Part shown: piece by piece, positions 1 to 51,694 of the stretch
Numbering within the stretch: position 1 is the stretch's first letter
How the letters are laid out: each line of letters starts with the position of its first letter
From: Actinomycetes bacterium
GTDB taxonomy: Bacteria; Actinomycetota; Thermoleophilia; Gaiellales; F1-60-MAGs149
NCBI GenBank assembly: GCA_025360225.1
Contig: JANYCN010000013.1
Coordinates: 1-64,000, forward strand
DNA length: 64,000 nt
Direction: 5' to 3'
Notes under the pieces: generated by a model
The model's input: the letters and a program-made list of their open reading frames with translations, nothing else
Database searches by the model: none
Told to the model about the DNA's origin: nothing
Program-made: the position numbers and the translations under genes

Positions 1-204
1 CGCACGCGTGTCAAGGCGAAGGCCTTGACACGCTAAGCGCAAGCGGCGCGCGGCGTTCCCGCGAAGCCCACGATCGGGCACGCAGAGCGGGCCGGATCGT
101 GGTCGCCGCAGCTCGCTGGTAGAGCCACCCGACGGGTGGCAGAGCCGGCAAGCGCAGGACGATCCAGGCAGTCGGATGACCACGCCATCTCACAATCAGA
201 CCAC
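1..204 (-). repeat. Partial copy (A) of a dispersed hairpin-rich repeat, truncated by the window edge
   Basis: Reverse complement (GTGGTCTGATTGTGAGATGGCGTGGTCATCCGACTGCCTGGATCGTCCTGCG...GCGTGTCAAGGCCTTCGCCTTGACACGCGTGCG) aligns along its length with 30906-31105. Confidence 0.9.
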
Positions 205-394
205 TAGGAGCCCCGTCAATTCAGTTCCGTGCTGTCGCACCGCGTGCGGTCGTCGCGGGGACGGCGGCCGCCCTTTGCACGTGCCCGAGCAAGCGCTTCA
301 GGTCGCCCGCCACCCCCGCTCGATGCCATCCACGCGCCATCGCCGACCCTTTCTTGACGGGCTCCCAGCGGCGACGCCGCGCCCGCGCGCAGCT

Positions 395-18264: not shown

Positions 18265-18624
18265 GTGGGCGAGGGGTCGTGCAGGTACTGCCGGGTCTAC
18301 TGCGACTGGGTGATCGACCCGGCCGGGTGTGAGGACACCGGCTGCGCGAACCTCTACGGCTACGACGACAGCGAGGGCAACCGCGTGCTCGGCTGCCTCG
18401 CGGGCGTGTTTCGTGCCGAGCTCGACCAGCGAACGCTCGCGCAGGTGCGCGCCGAGAACGGTGGTCGCTTCGGGGCGCTGCGCGCCGTCCGGCGTCCGCT
18501 GCCGATCTGCCGCGCCGTCGTCGAACGTGCGTACCCGGCAAGGCTAGAAGCGGTCGGCTGCCTCAACCCGGAGTTCGCCGAGGCACATGCCGGACCGGCA
18601 TTCCGGGTCACGCGAGGCGAGTGA
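18265..18624 (+). CDS. Small Cys-rich hypothetical protein (119 aa)
   Basis: GSCRYCRVYCDWVIDPAGCEDTGCANLYGYDD; stop codon lies in the repeat tip. Confidence 0.6.
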   Translation: MGEGSCRYCRVYCDWVIDPAGCEDTGCANLYGYDDSEGNRVLGCLAGVFRAELDQRTLAQVRAENGGRFGALRAVRRPLPICRAVVERAYPARLEAVGCLNPEFAEAHAGPAFRVTRGE

Positions 18625-18670
18625 TGTGATTGCGTAATGGCATGGTCATTGGGTGTCTGGAGCGAGCGGG
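18621..18670 (-). repeat. End fragment (F) of the dispersed repeat (right-end type)
   Basis: GTGATGTGATTGCGTAATGGCATGGTCATTGGGTGTCTGGAGCGAGCGGG vs reverse complement of the 30906-31216 right end ...CGGGTGTCTGGAGCGAGCGGG. Confidence 0.85.
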
Positions 18671-22783: not shown

Positions 22784-22793
22784 CGGGCTCCTC

Positions 22794-22824
22794 GTGGTCT
22801 GATTGTGAGATGGCGTGGTCATCC
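22794..22824 (+). repeat. End fragment (C) of the dispersed repeat (left-end type)
   Basis: GTGGTCTGATTGTGAGATGGCGTGGTCATCC identical to the reverse complement of the copy A tip. Confidence 0.9.
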
Positions 22825-23157
22825 TGTCCTGAACGCCACGTCGCAGGTCCTCAATGTGGCGAACAGCCAGACGGACGTACTCGTTGATAGTCGTTCTCTT
22901 CCCTCCGGGACAGCTGGGACGACCCAGTGCATGAGCACCGCCGGAGTCGGTGGTCCGGACGAGTGCCAGCAGTTCCAGATGCTCTTCAGCACGATCGGTA
23001 CACCACTCCAGAGCGTCGGATGTCACGAGATTGGTCACTCGGTAGGATTGCGCACGACAACGACATGGGCTACAACGGGTGCATGCGATCCACCATTTCG
23101 GGTACGACAGCGGTCTGGGGAAGTGACCAGGTCAGCCACGTGAACGGGAGGTACTGA
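22825..23157 (+). pseudogene. 5'-truncated, frameshifted metzincin-like zinc metalloprotease
   Basis: GCHEIGHSVGLR in one frame, then HDNDMGYNGCMRSTISG...VSHVNGRY in another; one inserted base restores HExxHxxGLRH. Confidence 0.7.
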
Positions 23158-28294: not shown

Positions 28295-29410
28295 ATGACC
28301 GTGGCTCCCGTGCGACACCTCTACGTCCACGTCCCCTTCTGTGGGCATCGCTGCGGCTACTGCGACTTCGTCACGGTCACGGGAAACGCGCACCGCCACG
28401 CCGACTACGTCGCCGCGCTCGTTGGTGAGGCTCGACGCTGGCAGCGCCAAGGGACGCTTGGAGACGGCGTCGACACCCTCTACGTCGGTGGTGGCACGCC
28501 GTCTGAGCTGGCTCCGACGCTGCTCGCGGCGTTGCTCGACGCCCTTCCGCCCGCCACCGTCGAGCTGACGGTCGAGTGCAACCCGGAGACGGTGTCCGAA
28601 CAGCTCGCGCGAGCTCTCGCCGAGCGTGCCGCCCGGGTCTCGCTGGGCGTGCAGTCGTTCAACCAGCGCCACCTCGTCACGCTCGAGCGGCTGACGACGC
28701 CCGATGGCGTGCGTGAGGCGGTCGCGGTGCTCCGCGCGGCCGGCGTCGCCAACCTCTCCCTCGACCTGATCTACGGCATCCCCGGTCAGAGCGAGGAGGA
28801 TCTCGAGCGCGACCTCGACGAGCTCGTTGCGCTCGCTCCCGACCACTGCTCAGCGTACGAGCTTGAGGCGAAGCCGGGGACCCGCTTTGCGGTGCACCAC
28901 GGCGGGGCGCTGGCGGCCGAGGCGGAGGCCGTCGAGGGGCACTACGACCGCGTGATCGATCGGCTGACGGCCGCTGGATACGACTGGTACGAGACGGCAA
29001 GCTTTGCCCGAGACGGGCGGCGCGGCGTGCACAACACCGCCTACTGGTCGGGGGTTGACTACCTTGGCCTCGGGATCGGCGCCGTGTCGACGCTCGGCGA
29101 TGAGCGACGCCGCAACGGCCCGCGCCTCGCGCGCTACATCGATGACGTCAACGGCGACCGTGTCCCGCCCTTCGCGCTCGAGCCCGTCGACGCGGACGTG
29201 CGACGCCGCGAACGGCTGATCCTCGGGCTTCGGCTGCGCGAGGGCGTAGAGCTCGGCGAGGTGCTGGGCGTGGTTGATGTCGAGGCGCTCGACCGTCTCG
29301 TGGCGCACGGGATCGCCGTCGTCGAGAACGGTAGACTTCGTCTTGAGCGGCGGGGACGGTTGCTGTACAACGACGTGATCGCGCGCCTGCTCGTCAGCGA
29401 GCAGCAATGA
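28295..29410 (+). CDS. hemW: Radical SAM heme chaperone HemW
   Basis: LYVHVPFCGHRCGYCDFVTV, YVGGGTPSEL, LGVQSFNQRHL. Confidence 0.92.
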   Translation: MTVAPVRHLYVHVPFCGHRCGYCDFVTVTGNAHRHADYVAALVGEARRWQRQGTLGDGVDTLYVGGGTPSELAPTLLAALLDALPPATVELTVECNPETVSEQLARALAERAARVSLGVQSFNQRHLVTLERLTTPDGVREAVAVLRAAGVANLSLDLIYGIPGQSEEDLERDLDELVALAPDHCSAYELEAKPGTRFAVHHGGALAAEAEAVEGHYDRVIDRLTAAGYDWYETASFARDGRRGVHNTAYWSGVDYLGLGIGAVSTLGDERRRNGPRLARYIDDVNGDRVPPFALEPVDADVRRRERLILGLRLREGVELGEVLGVVDVEALDRLVAHGIAVVENGRLRLERRGRLLYNDVIARLLVSEQQ

Positions 29411-30441
29411 CCGAGCATGGACACGACCTGACACCGCGCCGCGCGCGCATCCTGCGCCTCGTCGTCGAGGAGCACATCGCCACGGGCGCACCGGTCGGGT
29501 CGCGCACGCTGGTTGCGATCGGCGAGCTTGGCTACTCGCCGTCAACGATCCGTTACGAGCTCGCGCGGCTCGAAAACGTCGGGCTGCTGGACCACCCGCA
29601 CACGTCGTCGGGGCGCGTCCCGACGGAGGCTGGCTACCGGTTCTACGCCGACGAGGTCGCTGCCCAGCGGCTCCCTGGACGCCCGCTCGCGATCGAGCTC
29701 GAGCCTGCGCGTCACGAGGTCGACGTCGCGTTGCAGGCGACGACCGAGGCGCTCAGCCAGGTCTCGAGCCTGCTCGCGCTCGTCTCAGCGCCCTCCGTTA
29801 CGGCGACCGTGATCCGCCACGTCGAGGTGCTGCTGCTCCAGCCACAGGTGGTGATGGTCGTCGTGATCACGGCGTCAGGCTCGATCGCAAAACGGGTGTT
29901 CGCGTTCGACGCTGCGGTGGACGCGCGCCTCGTCGACTGGGCGCGAACCTACCTGAACGAGACCGTCACGGGCACCGGGATCGGCACGAGCGCGCTGCGG
30001 CGCAAGCTCGCCAACCCCGAGCTCTCGCTGCGTGAGACGGCATTTCTGCACGCGATTGGCGGGGCGTTCTTGGAGGTGGTGGAGGATGCGGCCGACCGCG
30101 TCTACGTGGGTGGCGCGAGCCGGCTGATGTCCGAGCTGCGCGCTCGTGAGGTGAGCGATCTGGGGCTGATCGCGGCCGCGCTCGAGGAGCGCGCAACGAT
30201 GCTCGGGATGCTGCGCGAGGTGCTTGCGACCGATCGTGTCCTGATCCGGATCGGCGGCGAGCACGACGACCCGCGCGTCCGCCCGCTAGCGCTTGTCGCT
30301 GCAAGCTACGGGATCGGGTCGCGGAACCTCGGCGTCGTGTCGCTCCTTGGCCCGGTCCGGATGGACTACGCCGGCGCCGTCGCCACCGTGCGTGGCGCCG
30401 CGGCGGCCCTCTCCGACTACGTGGAGTCGCTCTACTCGTAG
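29407..30441 (+). CDS. hrcA: Heat-inducible transcription repressor
   Basis: LTPRRARILRLVVEEHIATGAPVGSRTL, STIRYELARLENVGLLDHPHTSSGRVPTEAGYRFY. Confidence 0.95.
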   Translation: MTEHGHDLTPRRARILRLVVEEHIATGAPVGSRTLVAIGELGYSPSTIRYELARLENVGLLDHPHTSSGRVPTEAGYRFYADEVAAQRLPGRPLAIELEPARHEVDVALQATTEALSQVSSLLALVSAPSVTATVIRHVEVLLLQPQVVMVVVITASGSIAKRVFAFDAAVDARLVDWARTYLNETVTGTGIGTSALRRKLANPELSLRETAFLHAIGGAFLEVVEDAADRVYVGGASRLMSELRAREVSDLGLIAAALEERATMLGMLREVLATDRVLIRIGGEHDDPRVRPLALVAASYGIGSRNLGVVSLLGPVRMDYAGAVATVRGAAAALSDYVESLYS

Positions 30442-30543
30442 CGCGCTCCCGGCGAAACATGGGCAGAAGCGCCGATGTTCCTGCGCCAACGCCGGGCTAC
30501 GGTGGGTCAGGCACGATGACCCACGACGAACGGGGCAAGGAAC

Positions 30544-30834
30544 ATGGACACGTACGTGATCCTCAGGCGCGATGGCTGGCGCGACGGCGACGAGCTACGC
30601 GCTGCCGCCGAACGCTCGACGATTGAAGGAGACCGCGTTCCCGACGACATCCGCTGGATCCGCAGCTACGTGCTCGGAGAGGCAGCAGGAGGGCTCGGCA
30701 CGGTGTGCATCTACCAGGCCTCCTCCCCCGAGGCGATCCGCAAGCACGCGGCGGCTGCTGGCCTGCCAGTCGATGAGATCATCAAGGTCGCCGATACGGT
30801 CGTCGTGCGCCCTGACCCCGTGGCCGTGGTGTAG
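30544..30834 (+). CDS. DUF4242-like small protein
   Basis: RWIRSYVLGEAAGGLGTVCIYQASSPEAIRKHAAAAGLPVDEIIKV. Confidence 0.75.
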   Translation: MDTYVILRRDGWRDGDELRAAAERSTIEGDRVPDDIRWIRSYVLGEAAGGLGTVCIYQASSPEAIRKHAAAAGLPVDEIIKVADTVVVRPDPVAVV

Positions 30835-30905
30835 CGCCGGCGCAGACCTGGTCTGCGCGGCGTGGCGCACCGCGGAGACCGCTCACCAATCCCGGGCCCT
30901 GTCTC

Positions 30906-31216
30906 GTGGTCTGATTGTCAAATGGCGTGGTCATCCGACTGCCTGGATCGTCCTGCGCTGGCCGGCTGCGCCACCCTGCGGGTGGCTACGTCGCCGAGCT
31001 CCGGCGACCTGCCCCGGCCCGCTGTGCGTGCCCGATCGTGGGCTTCGCGGGAGCGTCGCGCGCCGCTTGCGCTTAGCGTGTCAAGGCCTTCGCCTTGGCA
31101 CGCGTGCGAGCGGGCGTGCTATCCAGCACGCCCGCGATCGGCAAGCCCTGCGCGACGCGCAACGCTCCCGCTCGCTCCAGACACCCGACGACGCCGCTCT
31201 TTGACAATCAGACCAC
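30906..31216 (+). repeat. Full-length copy (B, 311 bp) of the dispersed hairpin-rich repeat with perfect 17-bp TIRs; MITE-like
   Basis: GTGGTCTGATTGTCAAA at 30906-30922 and TTTGACAATCAGACCAC at 31200-31216; internal hairpins; no conserved ORF. Confidence 0.92.
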
Positions 31217-33789
31217 TAGCGCGCCGGCACGCCGATGCCGAGCCGGGTCGCCTCGATCCCCGCCCGCGCTCGCGTCGGCACGTCCAGCTTGCGCAGCACG
31301 GCAGACACGTGGTGGTCGACGGTTCGGGGCGAGACGACGAGCCGCTCGGCGATCGCCGCGTTCGTCAACCCCTCGCCGAGCAGCGCGAGGACGTCGAGCT
31401 CGCGGGCGGTGAGGTTCGCGGGGTTCTCGCGTGCACGCTGGCGCGGCCCGGTCGCGAGGCCGCGTACACCGAGCGCCCGTGCCTGTCGCGCCACGACCGC
31501 CCCCGCTCCGTCGGCGCCGATCGCCCGGAGCCGCTCGTACGCCTCTCGCAAGGAGTCACCGTCACCGGCCGCCGCGATCGCGAGCGCAGCCTCGTACCGG
31601 CAGCCGAGCGCATCCCATGCATCTGCCGCGTCCTGGAACCGGCCGGCGAGCTCGAGCGCGCACGGCTCGGCCGTGAGCCTCGCCGCACGAACGGGCGACC
31701 CCGTGCGCGCACGCCAGCACGACAGGACCCCGGCCTCCCACGGCGCCCACGAGGTGCAGGAAAGCGAGTACGCCGGCTCGCTAAGCTGTTCGACCAGCTC
31801 CGGTTGCCCGTGCAACCAGGCGATCTCTGCTCGTGCGCGTGAGAGCGGGCCCGACCAGGAGAGCGGCGTCATGTCACCTGCGGTCGCGTCCGCGAGCGCT
31901 AACGCGTCGTCGGCCCCCGGGTCACCCCGCCTGGCCCTCGTGAGCGCGAGGACGATGAGCCCGTAGAACCGCGCCGCTGGCGAGTCGAGCCCGCTATCGG
32001 CGAGGTAGGAGCCGGTCTCGGCTGCTGCGTCCCACTCGCAGCGGTCGAGGGCCACGAATGCCCGCGCTATCAGGATGCTCAGCCGCCACAGGTCGAGGTC
32101 CTGGTGCTCGCAGGCGGCCAGGCCACGCTCGATCTCGCGATCGGCGAGGTCGTGGACGTGGTGGTCCGCGGCGCTGATCGCGAGGTTGTTGTGGAGCTTC
32201 AGCGACAGCCCCCGATCACCTCGGGAGAGAGCGGCGTCCAGGACGGCCTCCATTGCCGCGAACGCAGCTGGTCCGTCTCGCTGAACGAGCACCGTTACCA
32301 ACCCGGACTCGATGTCCAACGCGAGCTCGGTGGCCTGCCCATCAAGGGTTGCAAGGACGTGCGCCTCCTCGAGCGCGGCAGACGCCGCGTCGAGCTGGCC
32401 GTCGGCGAACAGCACGCTCGCGCTCGCCCGGCGAGCTCTGGCGATCGACGAGCGGGCGCCGGACGCCTCAGCGAGCGCGAGCGCTCGAGCAGCGGACGCA
32501 CCCGCGTCCTCCGTCAGCCCGCGGCAGAGCTGGTGGGAGACGAGCCCGCAGAGCGCCGAGGACTCGCGCAGCGGCTCATCAATCTCGCGGTACAGCGCCG
32601 TCGCCTCGGCCAGGTCCGCCATCGACGCCACCTGCTCGTCCGTGTGGAAGAGCGCCTCAGCGCGCGCCTCAAGCAGCTCGGCACGCTGATCGGGTGGCAG
32701 GATCGACGCAAAGCGCAGCGCCCGGGCGTACTGTGAGGCAGCCTCACGGTGCGCGCCGAGCCGCGCGGCCTCGCGTGCCGCCTCCGGCGCGTAGCGCATC
32801 ACCGCCGGACCGTCAGCCGCCTCGTCAGCATGCGTAGCGAGACGTGACACGTCGAGCGGGAGATCGTCGCTCAGCGTACGGAGGATCGCCTGGTGGACGG
32901 CCCGACGGCGCGCTGGGTCGACATCATTGGCGACGACGAGCCGGGCGAGCTCGTGACGGAACGCGACACCGCCCGGCGCCGCTACCAGAAGCCCGGCGTC
33001 GAAGCAGGCGCGGACAGAGGGCTCCGCGCCCGGACACACGCCCTCGAGAAGGCGGGGCCCCGCGCCCTGCGCGGCCAGCGCGACCACCTCGAGCACGCCC
33101 ACGGCAACGCCGTCAAGCCGGGCGACACGGGCAAGCACCGCATCGCGAACGGTGGGCGGAACGTGCTCGCTGTTGGCGGCAAGGACCTCGGCGACGTAGA
33201 ACGCGTTCCCGCTCGAGAGGCGGTACAGCTCGTCCGTGTCGACGGCTCGATCGCCCGCAAGCGCGGCTACGCCCGCGCGTGAGAGGCGTCCGACGGGCAA
33301 CCGTGTCACGCCTGCAGGCGACGCGATGTCCCCGAGCGCGAGCCAGAGCGGGTGTCGACGGTCGAGCTCGTCGTCGCGGTAGGTGGCAACGATCAGGCCT
33401 CGCCATGACCCGATCCGTCGCCCGAGCAGGCGGAGCACCGAGAGCGTTGCCTCGTCGGCCCAGTGGACGTCCTCGAGGACCAGCACCGACCCATCGGTGA
33501 GGGTGTCTCGCAGCTGCTCGAAGACCCGGTAGGCGCCGTCCATCTCGTCACCATTGATCCGAAGGCCGTCGAGATCGGCGAACGCTCCGAGCGGACGCGG
33601 CACCGCAACTGGGTCGCACCGCCCCCAGCGGGCGACGGTTGGGGCGATCGCGACGCCGAGCGCCTCAAGAAGCGTCGTCTTTCCGACGCCGGCCTCACCT
33701 GAGACCAGGACGAGCTGCCCGGTTCCCAGCGCAGCCTTGGCCCGGGCGCCCGCGAGGGCGTCGAGGTGATCGCTCCGTTCGACGAGCAT
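31216..33789 (-). CDS. LuxR-family regulator with N-terminal AAA/ATPase domain
   Basis: LVSGEAGVGKTTLLEAL (Walker A), VLVLEDVHWADEATL, C-terminal LTARELDVLALLGEGLTNAAIAERLVVSPRTVDHHVSAVLRKL. Confidence 0.92.
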   Translation of the reverse strand: MLVERSDHLDALAGARAKAALGTGQLVLVSGEAGVGKTTLLEALGVAIAPTVARWGRCDPVAVPRPLGAFADLDGLRINGDEMDGAYRVFEQLRDTLTDGSVLVLEDVHWADEATLSVLRLLGRRIGSWRGLIVATYRDDELDRRHPLWLALGDIASPAGVTRLPVGRLSRAGVAALAGDRAVDTDELYRLSSGNAFYVAEVLAANSEHVPPTVRDAVLARVARLDGVAVGVLEVVALAAQGAGPRLLEGVCPGAEPSVRACFDAGLLVAAPGGVAFRHELARLVVANDVDPARRRAVHQAILRTLSDDLPLDVSRLATHADEAADGPAVMRYAPEAAREAARLGAHREAASQYARALRFASILPPDQRAELLEARAEALFHTDEQVASMADLAEATALYREIDEPLRESSALCGLVSHQLCRGLTEDAGASAARALALAEASGARSSIARARRASASVLFADGQLDAASAALEEAHVLATLDGQATELALDIESGLVTVLVQRDGPAAFAAMEAVLDAALSRGDRGLSLKLHNNLAISAADHHVHDLADREIERGLAACEHQDLDLWRLSILIARAFVALDRCEWDAAAETGSYLADSGLDSPAARFYGLIVLALTRARRGDPGADDALALADATAGDMTPLSWSGPLSRARAEIAWLHGQPELVEQLSEPAYSLSCTSWAPWEAGVLSCWRARTGSPVRAARLTAEPCALELAGRFQDAADAWDALGCRYEAALAIAAAGDGDSLREAYERLRAIGADGAGAVVARQARALGVRGLATGPRQRARENPANLTARELDVLALLGEGLTNAAIAERLVVSPRTVDHHVSAVLRKLDVPTRARAGIEATRLGIGVPAR

Positions 33790-33873
33790 CCCCCCATGAT
33801 CCCACCGATGGCGGTCTGACGCAACCCCTCTGGCGACAGGCCGGCGGCGCCCTCCGGCTACGATCCGGTGCGA

Positions 33874-35013
33874 ATGGCGGGCCCGCGCGACTACTACGAG
33901 ACGCTGGGCGTCGCTCGCGACGCGGACGAGGGCGAGATCAAGAAGGCCTTCCGCCAGCTTGCTCGCAAGCTGCATCCCGACGTCAACAAGGATGACCCGA
34001 CAGCGGCCGACCAGTTCCGCGCGGTCGCGGAGGCCTACGAGGTGCTGTCGGTCTCCGAGACGCGCGCGACGTACGACCGCTACGGGCACGCCGGCGTCTC
34101 CGGCAACCATCGTCGCACCGACAACGCCGCGCAGGCGGGGAACTTCGGCGACCTGTTCTCGATGCTCTTCGGCGAGGACCTCTTCGGCGGCGGTCGGCGT
34201 GGCGGGAGAGGGGGCCCGGTCGCCGGCGCCGACGCGGCGACGCAGGTCGAGATCACGCTCAAGGACGCCGCGTTTGGCGTCCCCGTCGACCTGCTGATCC
34301 AGACCGAGGTTGGCTGCGAGCGCTGCGAGCGCAGCGGTGCCGAGCCTGGCTCAAACCCGCGCACCTGTGCGACCTGCGGTGGCCAGGGGCAGGTGCGACA
34401 GCTGATGCGTACCGTGCTCGGGCAGGTTGAGCGGATCGGGCCATGCCCGACGTGTAACGGGCGTGGGAAGCAGGTCGACGACCCATGCCGGCGCTGCCGC
34501 GGCGTCGGACGGGTTACGGAGGAACGTACCGTGTCGGTCGCGATCCCCGCAGGGATCGAGCACGGCCAGCAGGTCCTCGTCCGGGGTCAGGGCCACGCCG
34601 GCGATCCCGGCGCTCCGGACGGCGACCTGTACGTCGCCGTCGCCATCGCCGACGATCCTCGTTTCCAGCGCGAGGGCGTTGACCTGGTGACGGTCGTCGA
34701 GCTGACGATGACGCAGGCCGCGCTCGGCGCGACGCTTGACGTCGAGACCCTTGACGGCTCGGCGTCGGTCGAGTTCAAGACGGGGACGCAGGCCGGCGAG
34801 GTGCGCACGCTCCGTGGTCAGGGCATGCCGAACGTCCGCTCAGGCCGTCGCGGCAACCTGCGGATCCTCGTCAACGTGCTCGTGCCGCGTGCCCTCTCCG
34901 GCGAACAACGCCGCCTGGTCGAGCAGCTCGACAAGGCGCTAGCAGAGAAGAACTACGCCGACGGCGGCGACGGGATCCTCGGGCGCTTCCGCAGGCATCG
35001 CGATGGTGGCTGA
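33874..35013 (+). CDS. dnaJ: Chaperone DnaJ
   Basis: [33 protein letters not shown]; Cys-rich zinc repeats ([32 protein letters not shown]). Confidence 0.96.
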
Positions 35014-51616: not shown

Positions 51617-51694
51617 CTCGTGGTGTGATTGTCAAATGGCATGGTCATCGGGTGGCAGTCGGATGACCACGCCATCTCCCAATCAGACCACGAG
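51617..51694. repeat. 78-bp palindromic copy (E) of the dispersed repeat: 33-bp imperfect arms around a 12-nt spacer
   Basis: CTCGTGGTGTGATTGTCAAATGGCATGGTCATC-GGGTGGCAGTCG-GATGACCACGCCATCTCCCAATCAGACCACGAG. Confidence 0.92.

What the first reader, a model, noticed from the sequence alone, without database searches (positions are those of the whole stretch)
30906..31216. Undescribed-looking 311-bp MITE-like hairpin repeat with perfect 17-bp terminal inverted repeats
Seen directly: GTGGTCTGATTGTCAAA at 30906-30922 is mirrored exactly by TTTGACAATCAGACCAC at 31200-31216. Related sequence recurs at 1-204, 18621-18670, 22794-22824 and 51617-51694. The short ORFs inside copies A and B differ in frame (e.g. 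MRWRGHPTAWIVLRLPALPPVGWLYQRAAATTI vs MKWRGHPTAWIVLRWPAAPPCGWLRRRAPATC), so it looks non-coding. I recognise no IS family from these termini. Inference: a non-autonomous mobile element or a structured intergenic repeat family.
Basis: seen in the sequence. Interest (0 to 1): 0.82.

Follow-up and report, generated by a model that had tools for sequence, protein, structure and literature searches.

The report
Stop-codon-seeking bacterial hairpin mobile repeat
A short non-coding DNA element, copied about 165 times around the genome of an uncultured actinobacterium, repeatedly sits exactly on the stop codon of ordinary genes without changing the protein, and folds into a hairpin shape that has been kept by matching changes across three genera.

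Summary
The repeat is real. The focal copy (30903-31219) has the perfect 17-bp inverted termini described. Half of the genome (1.62 Mb) holds 82 copies, about 165 genome-wide, from full-length (308-313 bp) down to 72-bp derivatives. The most similar copies share no flanking homology. Homologous families occur in three more order members (two further genera); the other 125 order genomes searched are negative. The interior is conserved; the termini differ between genera.

The unexpected part is placement. Copies lie against gene 3' ends (40/82; 7.8% expected). 23 are flush on a CTAG stop, so the element's edge is the gene's TAG. They occupy 23 of 109 CTAG stops and none of 1,369 other stops. Proteins checked keep normal C-termini. 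Two genes carrying an element at the stop in one genus end at the same residue, without an element, in another. A third genus repeats this with TAA/TAG. A branched fold shows compensatory changes at 40 of 70 pairs.

Best reading: a MITE-like non-autonomous DNA element moved in trans by a DDE transposase with a TA-centred target (CTAG/TAA; IS5- or IS630-like). No autonomous partner with the same termini was found; mobilisation and any RNA role are inferred.

The parts
30903..31219 (+). focal full-length element including its edges (left edge CTC, right edge TAG)
30906..30922 (+). left 17-bp terminal inverted repeat GTGGTCTGATTGTCAAA (the arm continues imperfectly to about 30941)
31200..31216 (-). 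right 17-bp terminal inverted repeat, exact inverse of the left
31216..31219 (.). CTAG edge; its minus-strand TAG (31216-31218) is the stop codon of the neighbouring LuxR-type gene
31216..34110 (-). AAA/LuxR-type regulator (PF13191, PF00196); its stop codon is the element edge and its C-terminus is natural
30544..30834 (+). SCO4226-like gene (PF14026), convergent neighbour ending 68 bp before the element
1..207 (-). partial copy cut by the contig start
18620..18671 (-). one-arm fragment of a copy
22791..22826 (+). one-arm fragment, 7 bp after a gene stop codon
51617..51694 (-). complete minimal 72-bp element (two arms only) with CTC/GAG edges

Best explanation
A high-copy, non-coding, MITE-like mobile DNA element. 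Two imperfect inverted arms (about 34-36 bp) enclose a GC-rich multi-hairpin core. It is most likely mobilised in trans by a DDE-type transposase whose target is a TA-centred motif: CTAG in this genome and in the sister genus, TAA/TTAG-like in the third genus. Insertion duplicates or preserves the target, so an insertion into a CTAG (or TAA) that is a gene's stop codon leaves a TAG (or TAA) at the element's edge and the protein unchanged. Because such motifs are rare inside genes of this GC-rich genome and coding insertions are removed by selection, surviving copies accumulate on and just after stop codons. Shown: copy number, ends, size variants, stop-codon placement, empty sites, homologous families in two further genera, conserved fold. 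Inferred: transposition by a DDE enzyme, the target duplication in this genome, the identity of the enzyme, and purifying selection as the cause of the distribution.
For: 255 terminus matches vs 0 control. 82 copies in 1.62 Mb, with arms facing each other. Best full-length pairs 97% identical with no similarity in 200-bp flanks. 23/109 CTAG stops occupied, 0/1,369 other stops, Fisher p about 9e-28. 40/82 copies within -5..+10 of a gene 3' end vs 7.8% null, p about 7e-23; only 2 of 63 in divergent gaps that hold 29% of intergenic bases. Natural C-termini: IF-2 aligned to profile 585/587, PntB 459/460, LuxR 208/209. Empty sites: the CheY-like and one other gene carry the element at the stop in G003, while their G000 orthologues end at the same residue with TGA or TAA and no element. 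No gene-orientation bias (10:11), as expected for a symmetric inserter. G072/G073 family: about 250-bp elements flanked by direct TAA/TAA at 4 sites, edges again used as stops. IS5 target is Py-T-A-Pu, most often CTAG (PMC5493358); IS630 inserts at TA with preference for CTAG (PMC2170065).
Against: No autonomous element with these termini was found: no transposase between facing arms in half the genome; DDE_3 absent from G000; the one DDE_5/IS701-type element has other ends; the IS5 transposase seen is nested in a copy and has other ends. No target duplication is provable in G000: direct repeats beyond the edge are at chance, and CTAG is palindromic. The third edge base is C at 21 of 113 ends, mirrored rather than directly repeated, which a simple CTAG duplication does not explain. 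Compensatory changes in the core are more than a MITE needs.
Confidence: 0.74

Rival explanations
1. A host-maintained 3'-end RNA module: copies are kept because the hairpin after the stop codon ends transcription, protects the mRNA or blocks translational re-initiation.
For: Placement at gene 3' ends and excess in convergent gaps. Branched fold with compensatory changes in 40 of 70 pairs, 93% of cells paired vs 32-39% in slid controls. One strand folds better as RNA in 38 of 40 copies. Structures just after stop codons are known to insulate re-initiation (PMC7518266).
Against: Element orientation relative to the flush gene is balanced (10:11). Positions are not conserved between genera. No T-tail terminator in 30500-31500. 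72-bp copies lacking the core persist. Compensation can also arise from hairpin template switching.
Confidence: 0.14
2. A REP/BIME-like single-stranded hairpin element mobilised by the genome's RAYT-like Y1 (HUH) transposase, which leaves no target duplication.
For: G000 has one Y1 protein of REP-associated type (NF047646 E=9e-15 but below its cut-off). No provable target duplication in G000. Strand asymmetry of folding.
Against: Y1 genes are also present in relatives that lack the repeat. The Y1 gene is not flanked by the termini. Genes use both ends equally as stop (10:11), unlike the one-sided target of Y1 elements. G07x copies show direct TAA repeats. Length and long arms differ from REPs.
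Confidence: 0.07
3. The element itself supplies the stop: it inserts near gene ends without CTAG preference and survives where its TAG falls in frame.
For: Edges CT[A/C]G look like part of the inverted repeat because the variant base is mirrored.
Against: Flush reading frames are 23 (TAG at the edge) against 4 (TGA at -12) and almost none in the third frame, although +0 and +3 residues should be about equally tolerated. Protein lengths equal those of element-free orthologues.
Confidence: 0.05

Closest known systems
MITEs of IS630/Tc1-mariner type (RUP of pneumococcus, Correia/NEMIS of Neisseria)
   Same: Short, non-coding, terminal inverted repeats, TA at the ends, high copy, hairpin-forming, intergenic (PMC2229807)
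   Different: Those are described as AT-rich, this is GC-rich; no IS630 (DDE_3) transposase in this genome; exact stop-codon placement is not reported in the two reviews consulted
MITEs of IS5-family elements (target Py-T-A-Pu, most often CTAG)
   Same: CTAG edges here; TAA in G072/G073; their terminus variant GAGCTCGTTTCAG resembles the end GAGTCCGTTTCAG of an IS5-family element in G000
   Different: The G000 repeat's own terminus (GTGGTSTGATTGT) matches no IS5 end seen
ERIC and REP/BIME palindromes
   Same: Palindromic, multi-copy, at gene 3' ends; G000 carries a RAYT-like Y1 gene
   Different: Much longer arms and core; no REP tetranucleotide architecture shown; not linked to the Y1 gene
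IS701-type element in the same two genomes (DDE_5)
   Same: Flanked by CTAG; present in G000 and G003 only among 11 tested genomes
   Different: Ends TAGTGCTTTGTTGG, nearly the same in both genomes, whereas the repeat's termini differ

Membership tests
MITE (non-autonomous DNA transposon derivative) | Short, no transposase, terminal inverted repeats | tested here: met
   72-313 bp, arms 34-36 bp, no long conserved reading frame
MITE (non-autonomous DNA transposon derivative) | Many dispersed copies with unrelated flanks | tested here: met
MITE (non-autonomous DNA transposon derivative) | Target-site duplication | tested here: inconclusive
   CTAG at both edges but palindromic in G000; direct TAA at 4 sites in G072/G073
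MITE (non-autonomous DNA transposon derivative) | Empty orthologous sites | tested here: met
   two genes, between genera only
MITE (non-autonomous DNA transposon derivative) | Termini shared with an autonomous element | tested here: inconclusive
   none found in half the genome or next to the IS630, IS701, PF01609 and Y1 genes examined; the assembly breaks at copies and only half was read
IS630/Tc1-mariner MITE | TA at both edges | tested here: inconclusive
   CTA at 72 of 113 ends, CTC at 21
IS630/Tc1-mariner MITE | Cognate DDE_3 transposase in the genome | tested here: not met
   no PF13358 match in G000; three in G003 with other ends
IS5-family MITE | Py-T-A-Pu target | tested here: met
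   CTAG / TAA edges; target rule from PMC5493358
IS5-family MITE | Cognate IS5-family transposase with the same ends | tested here: inconclusive
   IS5 transposase present in G000; its end differs from the G000 repeat and resembles the G07x repeat
REP/RAYT system | RAYT gene flanked by the palindromes | tested here: not met
   no termini within about 1.5 kb of the Y1 gene
Known RNA family (Rfam) | Match above gathering score | tested here: not met

The most novel reading that the evidence does not exclude
The conserved unit is the folded core, not the termini: one structured nucleic-acid module, kept by selection on its fold, has spread in several genera under different terminal repeats and target motifs (CTAG, TAA), and lodges on stop codons, where it acts as a portable 3'-end element.
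Probability: 0.2. Interest if true: 0.78.

Novelty: new variant of a known kind. Interest (0 to 1): 0.58.

Why it matters
It shows how a mobile element can enter essential genes (for example those for IF-2 and nucleoside diphosphate kinase) at the one place where it does no harm, by reusing the stop codon as its target. It gives a natural test set of copies against matched empty stop codons for asking whether hairpins placed directly after a stop codon change transcript ends or re-initiation. A conserved fold under changing termini would also separate what is selected in such elements from what the transposase requires.

Tried and rejected
Segmental duplication: rejected, no flank similarity between the most similar copies. 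Coding repeat: rejected, no conserved frame. Known RNA family: none. IS630 as partner: no DDE_3 gene in G000; in G003 one IS630 lies flush against a copy and shares its CTAG but has other ends. IS701 as partner: shares CTAG and co-occurs, but its ends are different and nearly the same in both genomes. IS5 near copies: nested or adjacent insertions, not the autonomous form. Exact terminus search in 84,980 named genomes: no match (the source genome itself may be left out there). Weak DNA hits in other order members look like chance matches. Covariation inside one genome: too little variation, no support, hence the cross-genus test.

Full report
Observation. The focal sequence is as described: exact 17-bp inverse termini at 30906-30922 and 31200-31216, and a very stable fold (-191.8 kcal/mol, z = -7.8). 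The window is contig 60 of an 89-contig, 3.24-Mb genome, called G000 here. HrcA relatives are Solirubrobacterales/Thermoleophilia and other actinobacterial metagenome-assembled genomes. No Rfam family matches.

Copy number and anatomy. A 21-bp terminus pattern matches 255 times in the genome at up to 2 mismatches and never in the reversed control. In 1.62 Mb (half the genome, taken as stretches) a profile finds 82 copies, about 51 per Mb. That implies about 165 genome-wide, a linear extrapolation. Arms face each other. Length classes are 72, 143-149, 211-214, 247-273 and 308-313 bp. The 72-bp form is just the two arms, so the core is dispensable for persistence. Full-length copies are 86-97% identical (median 91%), and the three most similar pairs share no flank similarity. 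No direct repeat beyond the edge exceeds chance.

Placement. Genes were called with a home-made hexamer model, so start positions are rough but stops are exact. CTAG is depleted about tenfold (241 against 2,295 expected in 0.83 Mb). 40 of 82 copies have a gene 3' end within -5..+10 bases of an edge, against 7.8% for random intergenic positions. Only 3 have a 5' end there, and only 2 of 63 lie in divergent gaps. Without the flush cases the excess remains (18/60, p about 4e-7). In 23 cases the edge CTAG is the gene's own CTAG stop; these are 23 of 109 such stops, against 0 of 1,369 other stops. Neighbour genes include IF-2, nucleoside diphosphate kinase and PntB with normal C-termini. Sense and antisense element orientation relative to the flush gene is 10:11.

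Relatives. A DNA search of 60 relatives found a homologous 261-bp family only in G003 (same family, other genus), with termini CTAGTGGTTCGACACGGAAATGGCG. There again the edge TAG is the stop of a citrate synthase-like gene, a CheY-like gene and others (gene names are my reading of the translations). The CheY-like protein is 92% identical to its G000 orthologue and ends at the same residue, but with TGA and no element in G000; a second gene behaves the same with TAA. These are empty sites across genera, so the intergenic DNA itself cannot be aligned. A covariance model of the core, run on 129 genomes of the order, found the family in G000, G003, G072 and G073 only. In G072/G073 (another family of the order) the elements are about 250 bp, with termini GAGCTCGAATCAGAATGAGC and direct TAA at both sides in four clear cases. 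Their edges serve as TAA or TAG stops of an SDR-type gene and others (same caveat on names). The interiors of all three families align with shared boxes, while the termini do not.

Fold. Within one genome variation is too low to test. Across genera, 35 of 68 pairs change on both sides while staying paired. With 12 sequences on the other strand it is 40 of 70, with 93% of cells paired against 32-39% when the pairing is slid, and 0 of 500 shuffles as high for the covariation score. About half of these pairs (21 of 40) lie inside the terminal stem's core rather than the stem itself. The structure was derived from the same alignment and the sequences form only three lineages, so the counts are not independent events. 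One strand folds better as RNA in 38 of 40 copies and in all cross-genus representatives; shared ancestry may contribute.

Mechanism. Symmetric use of both ends, facing arms, TA-centred edges, direct TAA in G07x and empty sites fit a DDE transposase acting in trans. IS5 elements use Py-T-A-Pu, mostly CTAG (PMC5493358), and IS630 prefers TA in CTAG (title of a reference in PMC2170065). In G000, one PF01609 match is an IS5-family element nested in a copy, whose end GAGTCCGTTTCAG resembles the G07x terminus variant GAGCTCGTTTCAG at 11 of 13 bases. The G000 repeat's own partner was not found. IS630 is absent from G000, IS701 has other ends, and the single Y1 gene is not linked. The excess on stop codons follows simply if CTAG is the target and coding insertions are lost; the excess just after stops that are not CTAG, and the mirrored CTC edges, remain unexplained.

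Verdict. The element is a new family of MITE-like repeats. What is unusual is the exact use of stop codons as insertion sites in three genera and a conserved fold under changing termini. In two prokaryotic MITE reviews searched by term, stop-codon insertion does not appear as a target preference (PMC2229807, PMC10969869), and my paper searches found no report of it; the library is partial.

Noticed in passing
G000 contigs C1, C2, C3, C5, C20, C22, C61, C62: Many contigs begin about 141 bases inside a copy, as expected if a de Bruijn assembly with k near 141 broke at this repeat; the family is a likely main cause of the fragmented assembly.
   Followed up: partly
G000, 0.83 Mb sample: CTAG is about tenfold under-represented (241 vs 2,295 expected) and about a quarter of the CTAGs that remain are gene stop codons.
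   Followed up: partly
L214 1-640 (G000 C26): An IS5-family transposase gene (NF033580) ends inside a repeat copy at its internal CTTAG: a nested insertion.
   Followed up: partly
L143 1030-2330 (G003 C34): An IS630-type element sits flush against a repeat copy and shares its CTAG; the transposase's own stop TAG is formed at that edge.
   Followed up: partly
L195 1205-1399 (G072 C392): A second hairpin element with termini GAGGCTTGATGTG lies in tandem with a family member and shares its CTAA edge.
   Followed up: no
element edges genome-wide: 21 of 113 edges read CTC instead of CTA, far more than CTG (4) or CTT (1), and independently at the two ends; unexplained.
   Followed up: partly
L129 1462-2166 (G000 C16): Single-copy RAYT-like Y1 transposase gene without the repeat's termini nearby.
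   Followed up: partly
window 29407-34110: In two related genomes hrcA is followed closely by dnaJ; in the window hrcA is followed by an SCO4226-like gene, the element and a LuxR-type gene.
   Followed up: no
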